A stretch of 32,642 bases of DNA from assembly GCA_016197225.1 (NCBI GenBank), contig JACPWC010000055.1, positions 1-32,642 of the forward strand, read 5' to 3'. The DNA comes from Chloroflexota bacterium (GTDB taxonomy: Bacteria; Chloroflexota; Anaerolineae; Anaerolineales; VGOW01). The notes under the pieces were generated by a model that worked only from the letters and a program-made list of their open reading frames with translations, did not search any database and was not told the DNA's origin. The position numbers and the translations under genes are program-made. Below, one piece after another: positions 4,001-29,088 of this stretch (its first letter is position 1; each line of letters opens with the position of its first letter).

Positions 4001-5116
4001 TCAATACTCAATCAGCTTCCGCCGCAGGGCCACGCTCTCAACCAGGCCGATGGCAAACATGAAGGTCAGGAGTGAACTGCCGCCGTAACTCACGAAGGGC
4101 AGGGGCAGGCCAGTGACGGGCAGGAGGCTCATGTTCATGCCGATGTTGAAGACCGATTGATAAAACAACATGGCCGCCACCCCGTAGCAGATCAACCCGC
4201 CGAACGGGTCGGGCGTCATTCGGGCCACCCGCAGGATTCTGAAGATGATCAGGAACATCACCAGAATCACCAGCATTGCGCCGATGAAGCCGAACTCGGC
4301 GGAAAGGGCCGAGAAGATGAAGTCGGTGTGGCGCACTTTGAGGAAGCGCAGGTTCACCTGTGAAGCGTGGTTGTAGCCCTCGCCAAACCAGCCGCCACTG
4401 CCAATGCTGATCAGAGCCTGGCGGATGTTGTAGTAAGCCGGGTCGTCGGTGGCCGGGCTGATGAATTGGATGATGCGTAGCTTCTGGTAGTCGGCCAGGG
4501 CCAGCCAGGCCAGGGGCGCCATAATAATGCCGGCCCCGACGAAGCCGGCGATGTGTTGCCATTTGAGGCCGGCAGCGAAGATCAGCGCCAGCCAGATTAC
4601 GCCAATGATGATGGCCGTGCTCAAGTCGGGTTGGAGGATGACCAGGGCCGCCGGAATGCCGGAGTAGACCGCCGAGTAGATCACCCACTTGAATTCTTTG
4701 ATCCGTTCGCGGTTGCGGCTGAAGTAGTCGGCTGTCCACAAAATGGTGCCGATCTTGGCCAACTCGGACGGTTGGATGAAGAACAGGCCAAAGAAGTCTA
4801 CCCAGCGTTGCGCGCCGTGAAAGACTTCGCCCACAATGAAGACCCAGGCCAGGGCGGCCAGGATGAAAAAGTAGAGCAGGCGCGCCAGCGATTGCCAGTA
4901 ACGGTAGTCAATGGCGGCGGCCACAAAAGCCACCACCAGGCCGATGAGGCCCCAGCGAATTTGCACGAACGGCAGGTCGGCCAGTTCCGGGCTTTCAAAG
5001 GTGGCCGAGCGAATCATGGCCACGCCAAAGATGGTGAGCAGGGCCACCAGCGCCAGTAGAAGAATATCGAAATGCTGCCACAGTTGGCGGCGTTGGGTTT
5101 GCAGAATTGCAGTCAT
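4001..5116 (-). CDS. rodA: RodA-type peptidoglycan glycosyltransferase
   Basis: This 371-aa SEDS-family protein polymerises lipid II into glycan strands for side-wall growth, working with PBP2 (mrdA) under MreB control in the membrane. About ten membrane helices are seen. Family motifs are present in order: QPSELAK, QPDLSTA (with the conserved Asp), the large loop with IGSGGWFGEGY, VRHTDFIFSALSAEFGFIG, and NIGMNMSLLPVTGLPLPFVS followed by YGGSSL. Length is normal for RodA. It is the last gene of the min/rod run, 69 nt after minE; the spacer is a heptamer-repeat hairpin. No clear ribosome binding site precedes the ATG. RodA is preferred to FtsW because of the mrd/mre context. Confidence 0.92.
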   Translation of the reverse strand: MTAILQTQRRQLWQHFDILLLALVALLTIFGVAMIRSATFESPELADLPFVQIRWGLIGLVVAFVAAAIDYRYWQSLARLLYFFILAALAWVFIVGEVFHGAQRWVDFFGLFFIQPSELAKIGTILWTADYFSRNRERIKEFKWVIYSAVYSGIPAALVILQPDLSTAIIIGVIWLALIFAAGLKWQHIAGFVGAGIIMAPLAWLALADYQKLRIIQFISPATDDPAYYNIRQALISIGSGGWFGEGYNHASQVNLRFLKVRHTDFIFSALSAEFGFIGAMLVILVMFLIIFRILRVARMTPDPFGGLICYGVAAMLFYQSVFNIGMNMSLLPVTGLPLPFVSYGGSSLLTFMFAIGLVESVALRRKLIEY

Positions 5117-12883: not shown

Positions 12884-14563
12884 TTACGGAGCGGGCGTGG
12901 CGGTGCCAAGCAGCGGGACAATATCCGGCTTGTCGAAGTCGGTGATGATCAACACGACCTCCAGCCGCTGGAAATCAACCGCCGAGGTAATGTCGGCTTC
13001 CTGGAAAACATCCTGAGTTCGTTTGCGAACTGAGGCCACCTGGCCCACGACGATGCCGGGCGGGAACTGACTGCCCAGGCCGGAGGTCAGCGCCAGTTCG
13101 CCGGGCTGGAGATCAACGTCCACTGGAATAAAGTTCAGGCGCAGTTCGCCCGATTGCTGGCCGGTGACTACGCCTTCGGTGCGTGAGTTTTGCAGGCGCA
13201 CGTTCACTGCCGCCGAGGCGTCGGTGATGAGCAGGACTTTGCTGGCGTTGGCCGTCACTTCAGTGACCGTGCCCACCAGGCCCCGGTCGGTGACGACGAT
13301 CATGTCGCGCCCTACGCCGTCGCCCGCGCCCTGGTTGAGCAGAACGTAGCTCAGGAACAGGCTTTCGTCGCGCCCCACCACATCGGCGGCCAGATAAGAC
13401 CGGCCGGGGTTGTCCCGGGCGTAGTCGAGCAATGCCGAGACCACTCCAAGCTGGGCCTGGGCTTCGCGCAGTTGGGCGTTCTCGCCTGTTAGCTGGGCCA
13501 CTTGTTGCTCAAGCTCGGCGTTGCGGGCGCGCAGGGCTTCGAGGTCGGACGGGGCGTTGAGGGTGTTATAGATGTTGTTGAAGACGCCGGCCACGAAGGT
13601 TTGGATAGGAGCCAGCGGGGCCAGCAGGCCGCTCTCCAAAGAGTTCAACATGCCGCGTTGCCCCATGACGATGATAGCGATGCTGAGGGCACCGGTTTCC
13701 ATCAGGTCGGCGATGATTTCGGGCGGGGTTTCGTCTATGGTTTCCTTGAGCGAGTCGATGATGGTTTGCACCGAACCCGATAGTGCTTCGCGAACTTCGA
13801 TGGACGAGACTTCGACGGACTCGGGCAAGCCGCTCACCAGGTTGCGCCCGCGCAGGGTGATCGTCTTTTCTTCGCGCAGAGGGTAGGCCGAGCCGACGGT
13901 GACTTTGACCCGTTCGGCCATGCGCTCGCCGATGAGCAGGTTGTATTTGTTGCGGGCGTAGGTGATGATGTCGGTGTCCATCTCGTCGCCGGCCACGCGC
14001 AGGGAGCGGCTGACGACGATGCCGCCCATCGAAAAGACGGCTACTTCGGTGGTGCCGCCGCCGATGTCCACTACCATTGTTCCCCGGGCCTCACCGACGG
14101 GCAACCCGGCGCCGAGCGCGGCGGCCATCGGTTCTTCAATCAAGTACGATTCGCGCGCTCCGGCGGCAACAGCGGCGTCGTACACCGCCCGTTTTTCCAC
14201 TTCCGTCACGCCTGACGGAATCCCAATCACCACCCGGGGGCGGGGGATAGGCACAATACTTTGCTCGTGGGCTTTGGCGATGAAATATTCGAGCATGGCC
14301 TGAGTGATTTCAAATTCCGAGATGACGCCGTCGCGAATAGGCCGGACGGCGACGATGTTGGCCGGGGTGCGGCCCGCCAGTTCTTTGGCTTCGGCGCCAA
14401 TGGCCAGCGGGCGGCGGGTCTTTTTATCAATGGCTACCCAACTTGGCTCGTTGATGACAATACCCTTGTTACGAACATAAACCAACGTGTTGGCGGTGCC
14501 CAGGTCAATGCCAATATCGAGCGAAAACAGGCCTAAAAGCCAGTTAAGTGGACTTGGTGGCAA
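12884..14563 (-). CDS. mreB: MreB-MreC in-frame fusion lacking the junction parts
   Basis: One 559-aa frame joins MreB residues 1 to about 291 to MreC. The MreB part has the phosphate-1 loop DIGIDLGTANTLVYV, RPIRDGVI, GIPSGVTEVEKRAV, EEPMAAALGAG and the phosphate-2 loop VVDIGGGTTEVAV. It stops at PPEIIADLMETG, exactly where MreB normally continues to the adenosine loop (LTGGGALLRG-like) and about 50 more residues. MreC begins inside its membrane helix (ALSIAIIVMGQRGML), then its coiled coil (about 335-368) and beta domain (YLAADVVGRDESLF onward). The junction is at about 13690. The hydrophobic remnant is only about nine residues. The start is a TTG with GGAGAG upstream. It may be a genuine fusion, a natural deletion or an assembly collapse of roughly 200-260 bp; I favour a deletion. 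Confidence 0.88.
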   Translation of the reverse strand: MPPSPLNWLLGLFSLDIGIDLGTANTLVYVRNKGIVINEPSWVAIDKKTRRPLAIGAEAKELAGRTPANIVAVRPIRDGVISEFEITQAMLEYFIAKAHEQSIVPIPRPRVVIGIPSGVTEVEKRAVYDAAVAAGARESYLIEEPMAAALGAGLPVGEARGTMVVDIGGGTTEVAVFSMGGIVVSRSLRVAGDEMDTDIITYARNKYNLLIGERMAERVKVTVGSAYPLREEKTITLRGRNLVSGLPESVEVSSIEVREALSGSVQTIIDSLKETIDETPPEIIADLMETGALSIAIIVMGQRGMLNSLESGLLAPLAPIQTFVAGVFNNIYNTLNAPSDLEALRARNAELEQQVAQLTGENAQLREAQAQLGVVSALLDYARDNPGRSYLAADVVGRDESLFLSYVLLNQGAGDGVGRDMIVVTDRGLVGTVTEVTANASKVLLITDASAAVNVRLQNSRTEGVVTGQQSGELRLNFIPVDVDLQPGELALTSGLGSQFPPGIVVGQVASVRKRTQDVFQEADITSAVDFQRLEVVLIITDFDKPDIVPLLGTATPAP

Positions 14564-19260: not shown

Positions 19261-20856
19261 ATGACTGTAGAAGCTCGCCGCGCTCGCCGTGAGTCGCGCC
19301 GCCCCGGATCCGCCGCTCGCCCTGCCGGGGTCAAACCCTTGCTCAGTAAACTGCCGCTCACCGAGGTGCTCTCGCCCGAAGGCGTGGAGATGATCCATCA
19401 GGCCTCCATGCGCCTGCTCAAGGAAGTCGGCATTTTGATTGTGGATTACCCGTCCGCCGCCGAAACCTTCAAGCAGAACGGAGCAACGGTGGAATGGGTG
19501 GAGAAAGATGTAACGTACCCGAACGGCGACACGACTCAGGTGAAGGGACATTTGGTGCGGCTCGACGAAGCGACACTGATGAACTTCATCAAGCAAGCGC
19601 CGTCAACCTTCACCCTGCTGGCGCGCAACCCGGCCAACAACCTGGCTGTGGGCGGGCGGCACACAATTTTTGCGCCCGTCTACGGCCCGCCCTTCGTGGG
19701 CAGTTTGGATTGGGGCCGCCGCCAGGCTACCATCGAAGACTTCCGTAACTTTGCCAAACTGACGTACATGGCCGAGCACTTGCACCACAACGGCGGCACG
19801 CTGGTGGAACCGAACGATATTGACGTGCGTGAACGCCATCTCGATATGTTGATGGCCCACATCACCCTGAGCGACAAGGCCTTCATGGGAAGCGTCACCC
19901 ACGCCGACAACGCCCGCGACACGGTGACGATGTCCCGGATTCTGTTTGGCGAAGAGGCCATGAGCCAGAACCCGGCCACCCTGTCGCTCGTCAACGCCTC
20001 GAGTCCCATGCGCTTCGACGACCGCATGTTTGGCGCGCTGGAAGTTTACGCGCGGGCCAGGCAGGCGGTGCTGGTCACGCCGTTCCTCATCGCCGGCGCA
20101 ATGTCGCCCAGCACCATGGCCGCCACCCTGGCCCAGCAAAACGCCGAGGCCCTGTTCGGCATTTGCTATGCCCAGATGCTCAACCCCGGCACGCCGTGCA
20201 TTTATGGCTCGTTCTTAGCCAACATTGACATGCGGAGCGGCGCGCCCTGCTTTGGCACGCCCGAAAATGCGCTGGCGCTTTTCGGCGGGGCGCAAATGGC
20301 CCGGCGCTACAAATTGCCGTATCGCTCCGGCGGCAACTTCACCGCCTCACGCATTCCAGACGCGCAGTCGGGCTACGAGTCGGCCAGCACCATCTGGCCC
20401 ACCGTGCAGGCGGGCGTCAACTTTGTTCTGCACGCCGCGGGCTGGCTGGAGGGCGGCTTGATCTCCGGCTACGAAAAATTTGTGATCGATCTTGAGATGT
20501 GCGCGATGATGGCCCGTTTTGTGAATGGCGTCGGCCTGAGCGAAGAAGACTTTGCCTGGGACGCTTACGGCGAAGTTCCGCCCGGCGGCCACTTTCTGGG
20601 CGCGTCTCACACCATGCGCCACTACGATACTGCCTTTTATCAGCACCGCGTCTTCAACATGGACAACTACGAGAAGTGGGAGGCCGAAGGGAGCCACGAC
20701 ACTTACCAAAAGGCCAACACCGTCTGGAAGCAGATGCTCAAGGAGTATCAACAGCCCGCGCTCGACCCGGCGATTTTGGAGGAGTTAAATGCCTTTGTCG
20801 AAGGCCGCCGGGTTGAACTGAAAGACCGTAAGCCGAGGACGGAGTGGAAATTGTAA
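19261..20856 (+). CDS. MttB-family (COG5598) corrinoid methyltransferase, non-pyrrolysine
   Basis: This 531-aa protein belongs to the trimethylamine methyltransferase superfamily. LSPEGVEMIHQASMRLLKEVGI, HTIFAPVYGPPFVG and TPFLIAGAMSPSTMAATLAQQNAEAL are typical of the TIM-barrel enzymes that move a methyl group from a quaternary or tertiary amine to a corrinoid protein. The archaeal MttB carries pyrrolysine at an in-frame UAG; here the frame is open without any UAG, so it belongs with the non-Pyl members, of which the known ones act on glycine betaine, proline betaine or carnitine. AAAGGAC precedes the ATG. No corrinoid protein or reductive activase is in the window, so the methyl acceptor is unknown. 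It heads a unit with mntA, hepT and the selenoprotein gene. Confidence 0.9.
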   Translation: MTVEARRARRESRRPGSAARPAGVKPLLSKLPLTEVLSPEGVEMIHQASMRLLKEVGILIVDYPSAAETFKQNGATVEWVEKDVTYPNGDTTQVKGHLVRLDEATLMNFIKQAPSTFTLLARNPANNLAVGGRHTIFAPVYGPPFVGSLDWGRRQATIEDFRNFAKLTYMAEHLHHNGGTLVEPNDIDVRERHLDMLMAHITLSDKAFMGSVTHADNARDTVTMSRILFGEEAMSQNPATLSLVNASSPMRFDDRMFGALEVYARARQAVLVTPFLIAGAMSPSTMAATLAQQNAEALFGICYAQMLNPGTPCIYGSFLANIDMRSGAPCFGTPENALALFGGAQMARRYKLPYRSGGNFTASRIPDAQSGYESASTIWPTVQAGVNFVLHAAGWLEGGLISGYEKFVIDLEMCAMMARFVNGVGLSEEDFAWDAYGEVPPGGHFLGASHTMRHYDTAFYQHRVFNMDNYEKWEAEGSHDTYQKANTVWKQMLKEYQQPALDPAILEELNAFVEGRRVELKDRKPRTEWKL

Positions 20857-20885
20857 GAAATATAAGATGGTACAATCAGCGCAAG

Positions 20886-21377
20886 ATGACTGTTCGAGCG
20901 ACAAATTCACCAGTAGATTACTACCAAGAACGCCGTCAGCGAGCCGAAGCGATTATTAATATATTGAAGCTTGGGCTTGAATTGGCGGTGTCGCGATTCC
21001 CGGTCGAAATCGCTTATCTTCACGGGTCGGTTGCGCGTGGCACGCCGCTCTCAGATAGCGACGTAGATTTGGCGTTAGTGTTGAACGAGTCGCTGCCGCC
21101 GATGGAACAGTTGCAATTGGAGTTTGAGATTCAAGATGCGATTGTAGAAGCCTGCAAACTAAAGGCTATTGATGTGCGCGTTATCAATCGGGCGCCCTTA
21201 AGCGTGCAAGGCGAAATCGTGCAGGAAGGGAAATGTCTTTACGTCCGCAACCGGGAATTCAAGGCGGATTTTGAGTCGCTGACACGGCGGAAGTATTTCG
21301 ATTTCAAACCTAATATGGAGCGGATGCAAAAAGCATTTCTGCAACACATCCGCCGGAGAGGACTATCACATGGTTAA
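20886..21377 (+). CDS. mntA: MntA-type nucleotidyltransferase antitoxin
   Basis: This minimal nucleotidyltransferase has the GSx10DxD motif: G47-S48 (LHGSVARG) to D59 and D61 (SDVDLAL). MntA antitoxins neutralise HepT by adding AMP groups to a tyrosine of the toxin. The 163-aa protein is a little longer than the minimal form, with an N-terminal helix and a C-terminal extension after RNREFKADFESLTRRKYFDFK. The ATG at 20886 is chosen because the frame upstream overlaps the end of the MttB gene. A TACAAT box at 20871-20876 could be its own -10, but no good -35 fits. It overlaps hepT by 8 nt. Confidence 0.9.
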   Translation: MTVRATNSPVDYYQERRQRAEAIINILKLGLELAVSRFPVEIAYLHGSVARGTPLSDSDVDLALVLNESLPPMEQLQLEFEIQDAIVEACKLKAIDVRVINRAPLSVQGEIVQEGKCLYVRNREFKADFESLTRRKYFDFKPNMERMQKAFLQHIRRRGLSHG

Positions 21378-21801
21378 ACCTGGTAAAGTCCTCTCCATGC
21401 TGAATAACTTGCGCGACTCTCGCGAGAAGTTGGGGCGCCTGGCTGAGTTCTCAGAAACCGATTTTCTTGCCGACTTCACAAAGGTTGAGAGCGCCAAGCA
21501 TCTTTTGCAAGTCTCGGTTGAAGCCTGCCTCGACATCGCCCATCACATTGTTGCCGATGACGGCTATCGCACACCACAAGACAGTTTCGACACGTTTGTT
21601 GTGCTCAATGAGGAGAAAATTCTGCCGGATGACTTTCTGCCAATCCTGCGTCAAATGACGAGCTTTCGTAATCGTGTTGTTCATCTGTATTGGGATGTGG
21701 ACGATCAGATCGTTTACCAGACGGCGCAACACCGCTTGGTGGATTTGGATCGGTTTGCCCAGTTAATTTCTGATTATCTTTCCCGCGAAGGCCCGGGGTG
21801 A
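21370..21801 (+). CDS. hepT: HepT-type HEPN ribonuclease toxin
   Basis: This 143-aa all-helical HEPN (DUF86) protein carries the Rx4HxY motif, R100-N-R-V-V-H105-L-Y107, which contains the RNase active site and the tyrosine that MntA AMPylates. Partner and order (antitoxin first, 8-nt overlap) fit a complete MntA-HepT type VII toxin-antitoxin pair. All key residues are present, so it is probably active. It lies in the same direction between the MttB gene and the selenoprotein gene, 13 nt before the latter, and would be co-transcribed with it. Confidence 0.9.
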   Translation: MVKPGKVLSMLNNLRDSREKLGRLAEFSETDFLADFTKVESAKHLLQVSVEACLDIAHHIVADDGYRTPQDSFDTFVVLNEEKILPDDFLPILRQMTSFRNRVVHLYWDVDDQIVYQTAQHRLVDLDRFAQLISDYLSREGPG

Positions 21802-21814
21802 GGAGACAGGCAAA

Positions 21815-22432
21815 GTGACCGTCCGAATCCAGGTTTTCAGCGATTACGTTTGACCCTGGTGCTTCATGGCCGAGTCCGGTCTGGACTCGTTGACGAAGAC
21901 CCGCGAGGTGGCGATTGAGTGGAAGGCTTACGAGCTTCGGCCCGGCGGCAAGTTCCCCGGCACGCCGGAGCAGGAGGCGCGTTATCGGGCGATGGTTCGC
22001 GAGCGGCACGGGCAGATGACGGCTTATGCCCGCGAACACTTTGGCCTTGAGATGGGTGAGCCGCCATTAGGCGTCAACTCGCGCCCGGCGTTGGAAGGCG
22101 AGCGCTATGCTCGCGAGCACGGCAAGGGCGCAGAGTATCATCACGCCTGCTTCGTCGCCCACTGGCGTGAAGAGCGACGGCTCGACGACATGGATATGCT
22201 GACCAGCATCGCCCGATCACTTGGCTTGAACGGCGATGAGTTTCGCGAGGCGGTGACGAGCGGCAAGTATCATGAAGAAGTGGAAGCCGACTTGCAACTG
22301 GCTTACGAGTACGGGATTAACGGGGTTCCCGCCTTTATCTTCGGCAACCGCTATCTTGTCTCCGGGGCGCGCCCGGCGGAGTTTTTAGAGCAGGTGGTGG
22401 ATAAGTGTGTTGAAGAAGGGCTGGTGGAATGA
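21815..22432 (+). CDS. DsbA/FrnE-like thioredoxin-fold selenoprotein (UGA = Sec13)
   Basis: The gene is read from GTG 21815 (AGGAG 9 nt upstream) through an in-frame TGA at 21851-21853 to the stop at 22430. The 12 codons before the TGA give MTVRIQVFSDYV, the usual FrnE/DsbA-like first strand, and those after give PWCFMAESGL. The family motif is VCPWC, so the TGA replaces the first active-site Cys and the motif becomes Sec-Pro-Trp-Cys. A SECIS-like hairpin begins 17 nt after the UGA. The rest is a normal FrnE-like protein: helical domain with AREHGKGAEYHHACFVAHW, then YGINGVPAFIFGNRYLVSGA with the cis-Pro. The role is a cytoplasmic thiol-disulfide oxidoreductase or isomerase. Starting after the TGA at 21866 would discard the active site. 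A nonsense mutation is the alternative. Confidence 0.85.
21871..21889 (+). promoter_or_regulatory. bacterial SECIS-like hairpin
   Basis: CGAGTCC (21871-21877) and GGACTCG (21883-21889) form a perfect 7-bp stem with the 5-nt loop GGTCT. The apical loop GGUCU is the same as in the E. coli fdhF SECIS that binds SelB. It begins 17 nt, and the loop 24 nt, after the UGA, inside the distance range described for bacterial SECIS elements. Confidence 0.8.
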
Positions 22433-22476
22433 AAACTTCCCGAAGGCAAGCAAGAAGCCTACGGGAAGTTTTTTTT
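22432..22476 (+). terminator. intrinsic terminator after the selenoprotein gene
   Basis: AAAACTTCCCG (22432-22442) pairs with CGGGAAGTTTT (22462-22472), followed by a T-run to 22476. It ends the MttB-mntA-hepT-selenoprotein unit and separates it from the next operon. Confidence 0.85.
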
Positions 22477-22534
22477 CTGCCCTCTGTTCTGTTTGCGCTT
22501 CAGGCCCGGCGATGACTGTCACTTCACATCAGGA

Positions 22535-26243: not shown

Positions 26244-26272
<29 letters not shown>

Positions 26273-27515
26273 CTTTGTAATTGGGGAAGATTTGATCCAC
26301 CGCCGGATTGTTGAGCCGCTTGAGGCAGACTTCGGCCAGAACGTCACGATAGTCGGTCGTCACTGCTAAATCGCCGGGGCCGACGAGCTGGCTGTCGGCC
26401 AGGCCCGGCCACTGGCCGTGAACCTTGTTGCCCATGACGTGGCCGCCCATCAGCATCATCAAACTGCCATGACCGTGATCGGTTCCCAGACTGCCGTTCT
26501 CTTGAACCCGGCGGCCAAATTCGGACATGGTGACGATAGTGAGACGGTCGGCGTAATTGGTGGTGTCTTCGTGGAAGGCGGCTAACCCGTCGCCCAGTTC
26601 CTTGAGCAGACCAGCCATCAATCCTTCGCTTCCGCCCTGGGCGAAGTGCGTGTCCCAGCCGCCCAGGTCAATCGCCGCCACTTCCAATCCCACTTCTGCT
26701 TTGATCAACATGGCGATCTGTTTGAGGCCGAGGCCAAATTCGGTTTCTGGATATTGGTTATTGGTTATTGCGGGCGTGTAGCCAAGCGGGTCGAGGGCTT
26801 GCACGGCGTCCATGATGTCGAGCGTTTCCTGGCCGACAATGTTCAACGGATCGTCTCCCGAATAAAGCGAAGTGAGGGCGGCCCGCATCTGCGCCAGCGC
26901 CTTCAGGTCGCCGCCGAGGTGAAAGTCGGCGATGGAGCGCAGGGCCGAGACAGGAACCGAGCCGCCGAGACTGCGTTGCGGCAGTTGGCCGAGGCCGATG
27001 GCTCGAAGCGGTGAACGATTGCCGGTATCAAGTGTAGCCAGGTGGCGGCCAATCCAACCGGAGGCCGGGCCTTTCTCGTCGTCCACGCCGCGCTCCATCA
27101 ACTCCATGGCTTTGAAGTGAGATCGCGACTCGTCGGGCGCGCCGCAAGCGTGAACGATGGCCAGATGCCCGGCCTGCCACGCCGGCATCAGCGGCTTGAG
27201 GTTGGGATGAAAGCCGAAGAAGCCGTCGAGGTCAATCGCTCGCAGATTAGCTTTGGCCTTGTTGTCGTCCGGGCGCGGGATGCCGAGGGTGGGGCGCTTG
27301 GCATAGTAGGCCTGGTCGCCGTGTGGGACGACGACGTTGAGGCAGTCGGCGGCGCCGCGCAGGAAGACGACGATGAGGGTGTCGCCGCGCGGCGCGGAGT
27401 GCTTGGGCGCAAACGCGAGTCGCGGCATCCATGCCGGTAAGGCAGGCCAGGCCACCGCGCCGGCCAGCACGGCGGCGGACTCAAAAAATTTGCGGCGGGT
27501 TAGAAGGTTGGGCAT
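26244..27515 (-). CDS. DUF1501 protein with Tat signal
   Basis: This 423-aa protein begins MPNLLTRRKFFESAAVLAG, a twin-arginine signal, so it is exported folded. DUF1501 landmarks are LIVVFLRGAADCLNVVVPH, GAPDESRSHFKAMELMERG, VGLEVAAIDLGGWDTHFAQG and VTMSEFGRRVQENGSLGTDHG. The domain is related to the alkaline-phosphatase/sulfatase fold; its substrate is unknown. The ATG at 27515 has GGAG upstream; the frame runs on to 27593 only because heptamer repeats happen to be open. A TTGGTTA repeat adds AITNNQYPE inside the protein. It follows the DUF1800 gene, its usual partner. Confidence 0.9.
26748..26770. repeat. heptamer repeat inside the DUF1501 gene
   Basis: ATATTGG, TTATTGG and TTATTGC are consecutive 7-mers. 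On the coding strand they read TNNQYPE in a surface loop just before the conserved GLKQIAMLIKAEVGLEV segment. Confidence 0.7.
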
Positions 27516-27531
27516 GGAGAGTCTCCGGGGA

Positions 27532-27613
27532 AGGCAAATGACAAATGGCAAATGGCAAATGGCAAACGTGAAACGACAAACGTGAAACGTCAAACGACAA
27601 ACGTGAAGCGTAA
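27532..27613. repeat. heptamer repeat cluster between DUF1800 and DUF1501 genes
   Basis: This is the clearest cluster: AAATGAC and three AAATGGC units, then AAACGTG, AAACGAC, AAACGTG, AAACGTC, AAACGAC, AAACGTG in strict 7-bp register, about ten units in all. It fills most of the 103-nt gap between the two genes. Confidence 0.95.
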
Positions 27614-27618
27614 AGTTG

Positions 27619-29088
27619 TTAGCGCCACTGGAATGCTGGAGAGGCGGCCAGCCCGGCGACGATGACGGGCGGCAAGTCGCCGTCGGTGGCCCCGGCCTCT
27701 TGCAGGGCGGCGGCCAATTCGTCCCGTTTTGTTGCCGGCAGTTGCACGCCGATCAAGAGTGAACTGAAGTGATCAATGAGCCTTGAAGGTGAGTCGGCGT
27801 TCGTAAGCTCGGTCAGGTTAATCTGCGTGCCGTTAATCTCGTTGCGCGCCAGGGCCATGGCAAACTGCCAGCGCGGCATGAGGTTGCCGCTCCAGGGCGC
27901 GGCGCGGTCGGGGTAGCCGTCGGGCGTGGGCCAGCCGAAAGGCAGTTGCCCCATTCGAGCCAGAGTGTCAACGATGTTCTGGCCGGCGTCGGTCTGGGCG
28001 TTGAGCGCCCGGAGCGAGGAGGTGATGAAGTTAACGGGCCGCTTGAACTTCGGCCTCGCGTAGGCAAGACCTTCAAACAAGATGACGCGCAGAACTGCTT
28101 TAATGTCGCCATCTGTTTCGGCAAACGCCGTTGCCGCCCTCTCAACAATTTCTTCCGGCGGCTCGTCGGCGATGAAGCGCCGGGCGAGTTTGGTTGCAAC
28201 AAAGCGGGCGGTGGAGGGGTGGGTTGCCAGTGTCTCAATGACCTGCTCGGCCTCGCTCTGGCCGTTCGGCTGAATCGTCAGGCCCAGCACTTCTTTGACT
28301 CCCGTGTCGTGAAAGTCGGGGTTGAAGGTGAAGTCGCCGTACCAGAAATGCTCCTTCACCGTCCAGCCGGTGAAGCACCGGGCCAGTTCCATCACGTCGC
28401 GCTGGGTGTAGCCGCCCCCGACCCCGAGCGTGTGCAGTTCCATGATCTCGCGGGCGTAATTTTCGTTGGGGTGGCTGGCGTAGTTCACCTGATTGTCGAG
28501 ATAGACGAGCATGGCCGGCGAGTGGGCCGAAGCCCACAACAGATCGCGAAAGTTGCCAAGCGCATGTTTGCGTATCGTCTCGCGGTCGTCCACGGTTTTG
28601 AGAAACCAGCAGATGCCTTTGTTCACGCTGATGTTGAAGTGATCCGACCAGAACTCGGCCATCACTTCGTAAAGCTGGCGGCGGCTGTAGACCTGGCAGG
28701 TGAGCGTGGCCTGGCGCAGTTCGTTGATGGGCGGCGTCACGTCGAGATCGTCGAAGAGCTTGTTGCCCATCTCAAAAATCTCGTTGGCGTCCATGTTGAG
28801 CGAAGGGAAGCGGCGGAGCCGCCAGTCGGCGGGCGCGTCGTCAATGGCTTCGGGCGCGAGTTGTTCTTCGATCCAGGCGTTCAGCCCGATCTCGGCGACG
28901 CGGGCGCGATCTTCGCCGCGCGGGCCAAACGTCAGGCGGCTCAATTCGGGGAAGCCGACACTGGAAACATTGGCCGGGTTCTGGAAGTCACCGGCCAACT
29001 TGTTGTACACCGGAGCGCACGCAGAGGTGGCTACCCCTGAAGCCACCAGTCCGGCCAATCGCAGAAAGTCACGGCGTGAGAGAGTCAT
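27619..29088 (-). CDS. DUF1800 protein, Tat signal with lipobox
   Basis: This 489-aa protein begins MTLSRRDFLRLAGLVASG (twin Arg at 5-6), and TSAC at 21-24 offers a lipobox Cys24, so it is probably an exported lipoprotein. DUF1800 features are RLTFGPRGEDRARVAEIGL, MAEFWSDHFNISVNKG, NYAREIMELHTLGVGGGYTQ and ARCFTGWTV. The family is always found with DUF1501, and their joint function is unknown; links to surface structures or extracellular matrix have been suggested. It is upstream of DUF1501 on the same strand. No clear ribosome site precedes the ATG. Confidence 0.92.
   Translation of the reverse strand: MTLSRRDFLRLAGLVASGVATSACAPVYNKLAGDFQNPANVSSVGFPELSRLTFGPRGEDRARVAEIGLNAWIEEQLAPEAIDDAPADWRLRRFPSLNMDANEIFEMGNKLFDDLDVTPPINELRQATLTCQVYSRRQLYEVMAEFWSDHFNISVNKGICWFLKTVDDRETIRKHALGNFRDLLWASAHSPAMLVYLDNQVNYASHPNENYAREIMELHTLGVGGGYTQRDVMELARCFTGWTVKEHFWYGDFTFNPDFHDTGVKEVLGLTIQPNGQSEAEQVIETLATHPSTARFVATKLARRFIADEPPEEIVERAATAFAETDGDIKAVLRVILFEGLAYARPKFKRPVNFITSSLRALNAQTDAGQNIVDTLARMGQLPFGWPTPDGYPDRAAPWSGNLMPRWQFAMALARNEINGTQINLTELTNADSPSRLIDHFSSLLIGVQLPATKRDELAAALQEAGATDGDLPPVIVAGLAASPAFQWR

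What the first reader, a model, noticed from the sequence alone, without database searches (positions are those of the whole stretch)
21815..22432. Predicted selenoprotein: FrnE/DsbA-like enzyme with Sec-Pro-Trp-Cys active site
The UGA is exactly at the first Cys of the CPWC motif, with the expected beta strand encoded in frame on its left and the rest of the family on its right. A perfect 7-bp hairpin with a GGUCU loop, the same loop as the E. coli fdhF SECIS, follows 17 nt later. An automatic start at 21866 would remove the active site and hide it. Thioredoxin-fold UxxC selenoproteins are known, but I do not recall one in this setting between a toxin-antitoxin pair and MttB genes.
Basis: partly seen in the sequence, partly recalled or inferred. 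Interest (0 to 1): 0.85.

Follow-up and report, generated by a model that had tools for sequence, protein, structure and literature searches.

The report
Selenocysteine-containing FrnE/DsbA-like redox enzyme gene
A Chloroflexota bacterium encodes a redox enzyme whose active site uses the rare amino acid selenocysteine, written with a codon that normally means stop; the reading is strongly supported, but this type of selenoprotein has been known since 2005, so it is a well-documented new member and not a new kind.

Summary
Window 21815-22432 reads as a 205-aa FrnE/DsbA-like protein with UGA at codon 13, the first Cys of CPWC. The same genome carries selA, selB, selC (anticodon UCA) and a selD with its own in-frame UGA. 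Among 88 distinct homologues, mostly Chloroflexota plus two Desulfosporosinus, 77 have TGA at this exact codon, 8 TGC and 2 TGT. The hairpin is stronger than synonymous-codon controls in TGA forms (mean z -1.39) but not in Cys forms (+0.17, +0.88; p = 3e-5), and its wobble positions covary. One Cys form, L073, keeps a hairpin, consistent with a recent Sec-to-Cys change. In one related pair, the Cys-form genome has no detectable selA or selC while its TGA relative has both. The model matches D. radiodurans FrnE. 'DsbA-like, COG2761, UxxC' selenoproteins were described in 2005 (PMC1088965), so this is a new member of a known kind. The toxin-antitoxin neighbour is absent in the sister species; only the upstream mttB adjacency is shared, within the genus.

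The parts
21800..21805 (+). ribosome-binding site GAGGAG, 9 nt before the GTG start
   Evidence: read from the sequence
21815..22432 (+). seleno-FrnE/DsbA-like gene, 205 aa with Sec13
   Evidence: PF01323 4e-33; nearest solved structures are FrnE 5cnw/5cp1; AlphaFold2 model pLDDT 95.8, best PDB matches D. radiodurans FrnE TM 0.83-0.86
21851..21853 (+). UGA read as selenocysteine (Sec13 of the U-P-W-C motif)
   Evidence: TGA in 77 of 88 homologues, TGC 8, TGT 2; full sel machinery in the genome
21871..21889 (+). bacterial SECIS hairpin CGAGUCC-GGUCU-GGACUCG, 17 nt after the UGA
   Evidence: synonymous-codon test, TGA against Cys forms, and covariation at wobble positions
22431..22477 (+). intrinsic terminator directly at the end of the gene
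   Evidence: fold -23.3 kcal/mol, z -4.77, with a T run
19261..20856 (+). MttB-family methyltransferase upstream; in the sister species its homologue is the direct neighbour of the seleno-gene
   Evidence: TIGR02369 2.9e-87, below that model's cut-off, so MttB superfamily and not the pyrrolysine equivalog; L080 context
20844..21801 (+). MNT nucleotidyltransferase (20844-21377) plus HepT-like (21370-21801) toxin-antitoxin pair, probably an inserted module
   Evidence: PF18765 and PF01934; no room for it between mttB and the seleno-gene in L080

Best explanation
The gene encodes a cytoplasmic FrnE-type (COG2761/PF01323, UxxC) thiol-disulfide oxidoreductase whose attacking residue is selenocysteine. 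SelB with Sec-tRNA(UCA) binds the hairpin just downstream of the UGA and inserts Sec at position 13. Sec13, at the N-terminus of the first helix, with Cys16 as resolving residue and the cis-Pro loop GVPA (Pro172) opposite, exchanges with disulfides or oxidised substrates. Shown here: the decoding machinery, the conserved codon, the conserved hairpin and the fold. Inferred: that Sec is actually inserted, that the protein is cytoplasmic (no signal peptide before residue 13) and reductase/isomerase-like by analogy with D. radiodurans FrnE, and that an outside partner such as thioredoxin recycles it, because the C-terminal CX4C that recycles D. radiodurans FrnE is missing.
For: selA 536.9 bits, selB 355.7 bits, tRNA-Sec 72.6 bits with anticodon TCA, selD 371.1 bits, all over their cut-offs in the window's own genome; selD has its own in-frame TGA in CAGUAAK, a second UGA at a classic Sec site. 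Sister species G003 (64% identity): TGA at the same codon, plus selA and tRNA-Sec. In the class sample 53 of 58 matching genomes have an in-frame TGA; in the phylum sample 64 of 80 matches. Aligned codons: 77 TGA, 8 TGC, 2 TGT, 1 unalignable. Hairpin free energy against synonymous-codon shuffles: TGA forms mean z -1.39 (n=77), TGC +0.17 (n=8), TGT +0.88 (n=2), Mann-Whitney p 3.3e-5; windows elsewhere in the same genes average near 0. Covariation: pair 23-35, both third codon positions, paired in 39 of 40 against a shuffle mean of 25.4 (max 33), with CG, GC, TA, TG and GT types; pair 26-32, also wobble-wobble, 40 of 40 against 34.3 (max 38). Other clades place a different hairpin in another register. 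Cys-form G087 has no detected selA or tRNA-Sec while its TGA-form relative G059 has both. Fold: FrnE, TM 0.83-0.86.
Against: No direct evidence of Sec insertion. The hairpin in the window alone is weak, and the sister species' stem carries one internal mismatch and is not its best fold. Seven of 53 class genomes with TGA gave no selA at the first threshold; one of them has a partial match and four have tRNA-Sec, while three with neither are drafts at 75-85% completeness. One Cys form (L073) keeps a hairpin. Rfam gave no SECIS match, but I know of no general bacterial SECIS model there.
Confidence: 0.95

Rival explanations
1. The UGA is a sequencing or assembly error of TGC/TGT in an ordinary FrnE gene.
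For: The window is from a draft genome of 126 contigs.
Against: The same codon is TGA in the sister species and in 77 of 88 homologues from many families and in Desulfosporosinus.
Confidence: 0.005
2. The gene is a pseudogene, or begins at ATG 21866 and makes a truncated protein without the active site.
For: The mechanical ORF list gives 21866-22432.
Against: Conserved coding sequence on the 5' side of the UGA in homologues, with an RBS at the upstream GTG; no other stop in the frame; the UGA is kept over large divergence.
Confidence: 0.015
3. UGA is read as something else here (tryptophan code, or general suppression), not Sec.
For: None found.
Against: UGA ends the gene itself (22430-22432) and the neighbouring hepT (21799-21801); in homologues the alternative at this codon is Cys, not Trp; the Sec machinery is present.
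Confidence: 0.01

Closest known systems
DsbA-like selenoprotein family of Zhang & Gladyshev (COG2761, UxxC; PMC1088965; 'DsbA 1', pfam01323, PMC2398784; 'DsbA-like protein form 1', PMC13188914)
   Same: PF01323/FrnE-type thioredoxin fold, Sec replacing the first Cys of CxxC, bacterial SECIS just downstream
   Different: Those were found in Sargasso Sea and ocean metagenomes and, in 2006, in Deltaproteobacteria and Clostridia (PMC1794560); here in Chloroflexota across many families, with hairpin register and Sec/Cys changes traced on a tree. Their sequences were not aligned with this one here.
Deinococcus radiodurans FrnE (DR_0659; PDB 5cnw, 5co3, 5xwh)
   Same: Closest solved fold (TM 0.83-0.86, 27-29% identity), CPWC active site, predicted cytoplasmic
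   Different: Cys instead of Sec; has a C-terminal CX4C (PMC8945050) that this protein lacks
Streptomyces coelicolor SCO1869 (PDB 3gl5)
   Same: DsbA/FrnE-like fold, matched over residues 3-196
   Different: A more distant match by both sequence and fold; not reported as a selenoprotein

Membership tests
Bacterial selenoproteins | selA, selB, selC, selD in the same genome | tested here: met
   all over curated cut-offs
Bacterial selenoproteins | in-frame UGA at a conserved redox Cys position, with Cys in some homologues | tested here: met
   77 TGA, 8 TGC, 2 TGT
Bacterial selenoproteins | SECIS hairpin shortly downstream of the UGA, absent from Cys forms | tested here: met
   synonymous-codon test and covariation; one Cys form (L073) keeps it
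Bacterial selenoproteins | Sec physically present in the protein | not testable with these tools
   needs 75Se labelling or mass spectrometry
FrnE / DsbA-like (COG2761, PF01323) | DSBA domain with helical insertion, CPWC-type motif and cis-Pro loop | tested here: met
   PF01323 4e-33; invariant C/U13, P14, C16, V171-P172; fold match to FrnE
FrnE / DsbA-like (COG2761, PF01323) | C-terminal CX4C of D. radiodurans FrnE (present in many, not all, FrnE; not family-defining) | tested here: not met
   sequence ends VVDKCVEEGLVE, no CX4C; it is also absent from some accepted FrnE such as that of S. roseofulvus (PMC8945050)
DsbA-like UxxC selenoprotein family (2005) | direct sequence match to the published members | not tested
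   family and motif agree (PMC1088965, PMC2398784, PMC13188914), but the published sequences were not compared

The most novel reading that the evidence does not exclude
In this genus the seleno-FrnE has been recruited to a corrinoid-dependent MttB methyltransferase cluster and serves it, for example by keeping corrinoid-protein or activator thiols reduced: in the sister species it sits directly between mttB and genes for a PucR regulator, a RACo-type activator, a corrinoid protein and a homocysteine S-methyltransferase.
Probability: 0.12. Interest if true: 0.5.

Novelty: new member of a known kind. Interest (0 to 1): 0.33.

Why it matters
Standard-code gene calling drops the first 17 residues and the active site of this enzyme, and the same is likely for many homologues. 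The Chloroflexota set shows that UGA is the prevailing state among the close relatives of this FrnE there, with at least five Sec/Cys changes on the tree and one Cys form that still carries a hairpin, which makes it a good natural case for asking when and why Sec is swapped for Cys.

Tried and rejected
Rfam at gathering and relaxed thresholds found no SECIS in or near the gene. NCBIfam has no model that names this protein; the best hits are far below their cut-offs. A search for neighbours shared across distant homologues found no widely shared cluster that includes the window, so the gene context gives no family-wide hint of function. The correlation of selA with the TGA form across the class is uninformative overall, because 318 of 396 genomes have selA anyway; only the G087/G059 pair tells. 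The loop identity with E. coli fdhF was considered and not relied on, because most homologues have AGTTT. Six Cys-form genomes of one genus (g249) still have selA and tRNA-Sec, so loss of the machinery is not needed for a Cys form.

Full report
Observation. The sequence at 21815-22432 is as described: GTG start with an RBS 9 nt upstream, TGA at 21851-21853 as codon 13, then PWC and a full DSBA domain to the stop at 22430-22432. The 7-bp hairpin with a GGTCT loop is at 21871-21889, 17 nt after the UGA. Read with the standard code, the ORF list begins at 21866 and the active site is lost.

Decoding machinery. The window's genome (4.8 Mb, 98% complete) carries selB (contig C104), selA (C126), selD (C37) and a tRNA-Sec gene with anticodon TCA (C75), each over its curated cut-off. 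Its selD has an in-frame TGA in the motif CAGUAAK, so the same genome holds a second UGA at a well-known Sec site.

Conservation of the codon. The sister species G003 has a 64%-identical homologue with TGA at the same codon. In 396 genomes of the class, 58 have a close homologue, and 53 of these have an in-frame TGA; in a phylum-wide sample 64 of 80 matches do. Where the codon was aligned, in 88 distinct sequences, it was TGA 77 times, TGC 8 and TGT 2; one sequence was not alignable there. Two Desulfosporosinus genes also have TGA. The residues on both sides are conserved. This excludes a sequencing error. The homologues were found by similarity to this protein, so the proportion of Sec forms applies to its close relatives and not to FrnE at large.

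The hairpin. For each gene I compared the fold of the 33 nt at 12-44 nt from the UGA with 400 versions of the same peptide written with other synonymous codons. TGA forms are more stable than these controls (mean z -1.39, n=77), Cys forms are not (+0.17 for 8 TGC, +0.88 for 2 TGT; Mann-Whitney p 3.3e-5), and windows elsewhere in the same genes average close to zero. In the main register (40 sequences, window included) the pair at offsets 23-35, two wobble positions, is formed in 39 of 40 with five pair types, against a shuffle maximum of 33; pair 26-32, also wobble-wobble, in 40 of 40 against a maximum of 38. A second group of clades has another hairpin whose centre lies 4 nt nearer to the UGA. 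The outer three pairs of the window's stem are not general. These are the marks of a bacterial SECIS element. The tests do not correct for relatedness, so the p values are guides only.

Sec and Cys. A tree of 87 proteins needs at least five changes between Sec and Cys, with Cys forms nested among Sec forms (quick tree, midpoint root). L073, a Cys form among Sec relatives, still has a strong hairpin (z -2.61), as expected of a recent Sec-to-Cys change. G087 (Cys) has neither selA nor tRNA-Sec detectable, while its neighbour on the tree, G059 (TGA), has both. Six Cys-form genomes of another genus keep the machinery, so the link is not strict.

Protein and mechanism. AlphaFold2 gives pLDDT 95.8 for the protein modelled with Cys at position 13, and the best matches in the PDB are five structures of D. 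radiodurans FrnE at TM 0.83-0.86. Residue 13 immediately precedes helix 14-29, Cys16 is invariant, and Val171-Pro172 is the cis-Pro loop position. D. radiodurans FrnE is reported as a cytoplasmic disulfide isomerase/reductase involved in oxidative stress tolerance (PMC8945050). This protein lacks its C-terminal CX4C, so I infer recycling by a separate partner. The physiological substrate is unknown.

Setting. In the window an MNT/HepT pair lies between mttB and this gene. In the sister species there is no room for it: mttB ends about 85 nt before the seleno-gene, which is followed downstream by a PucR regulator, a RACo-type activator, a corrinoid protein and a homocysteine S-methyltransferase. 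The toxin-antitoxin pair is therefore most simply an insertion, although with two genomes its loss in the sister cannot be excluded. The mttB link was not seen outside the genus. A strong intrinsic terminator follows the gene.

What is known. DsbA-like selenoproteins with UxxC, assigned to COG2761, were reported from the Sargasso Sea in 2005 (PMC1088965), in Deltaproteobacteria and Clostridia in 2006 (PMC1794560), in the GOS data in 2008 (PMC2398784), and are listed as 'DsbA-like protein form 1, PF01323, UxxC' in a 2026 review (PMC13188914). I found no paper on this family in Anaerolineae, but only open-licence papers were searchable. Verdict: a well-supported new member of a known kind.

Noticed in passing
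window 12884-14563 (-): One ORF joins MreB (lacking its C-terminal part) to MreC. In the same-genus genomes G001, G003 and G004 mreB and mreC match as two pieces about 300 bp apart, so this is either a real deletion fusion or an assembly collapse.
   Followed up: partly
window 20844-21801: MNT/HepT toxin-antitoxin pair apparently inserted between mttB and the seleno-gene; absent at that spot in the sister species (L080).
   Followed up: yes
L073, codon at position 4028 of its reverse complement (G318): Cys (TGC) homologue that still carries a strong SECIS-like hairpin, a likely recent Sec-to-Cys change.
   Followed up: partly
L034 and L042: Homologues with an additional in-frame TAA or TAG besides the Sec UGA; decay and sequence error were not distinguished.
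   Followed up: no
window 26244-29088 (-): DUF1501 and DUF1800 genes side by side.
   Followed up: no
G031 contig C1, 977-1552 and 4397949-4398524 (no locus fetched): Two equal-scoring copies of a seleno-FrnE homologue near the two ends of a single 4.4 Mb contig, perhaps an untrimmed circular overlap.
   Followed up: no
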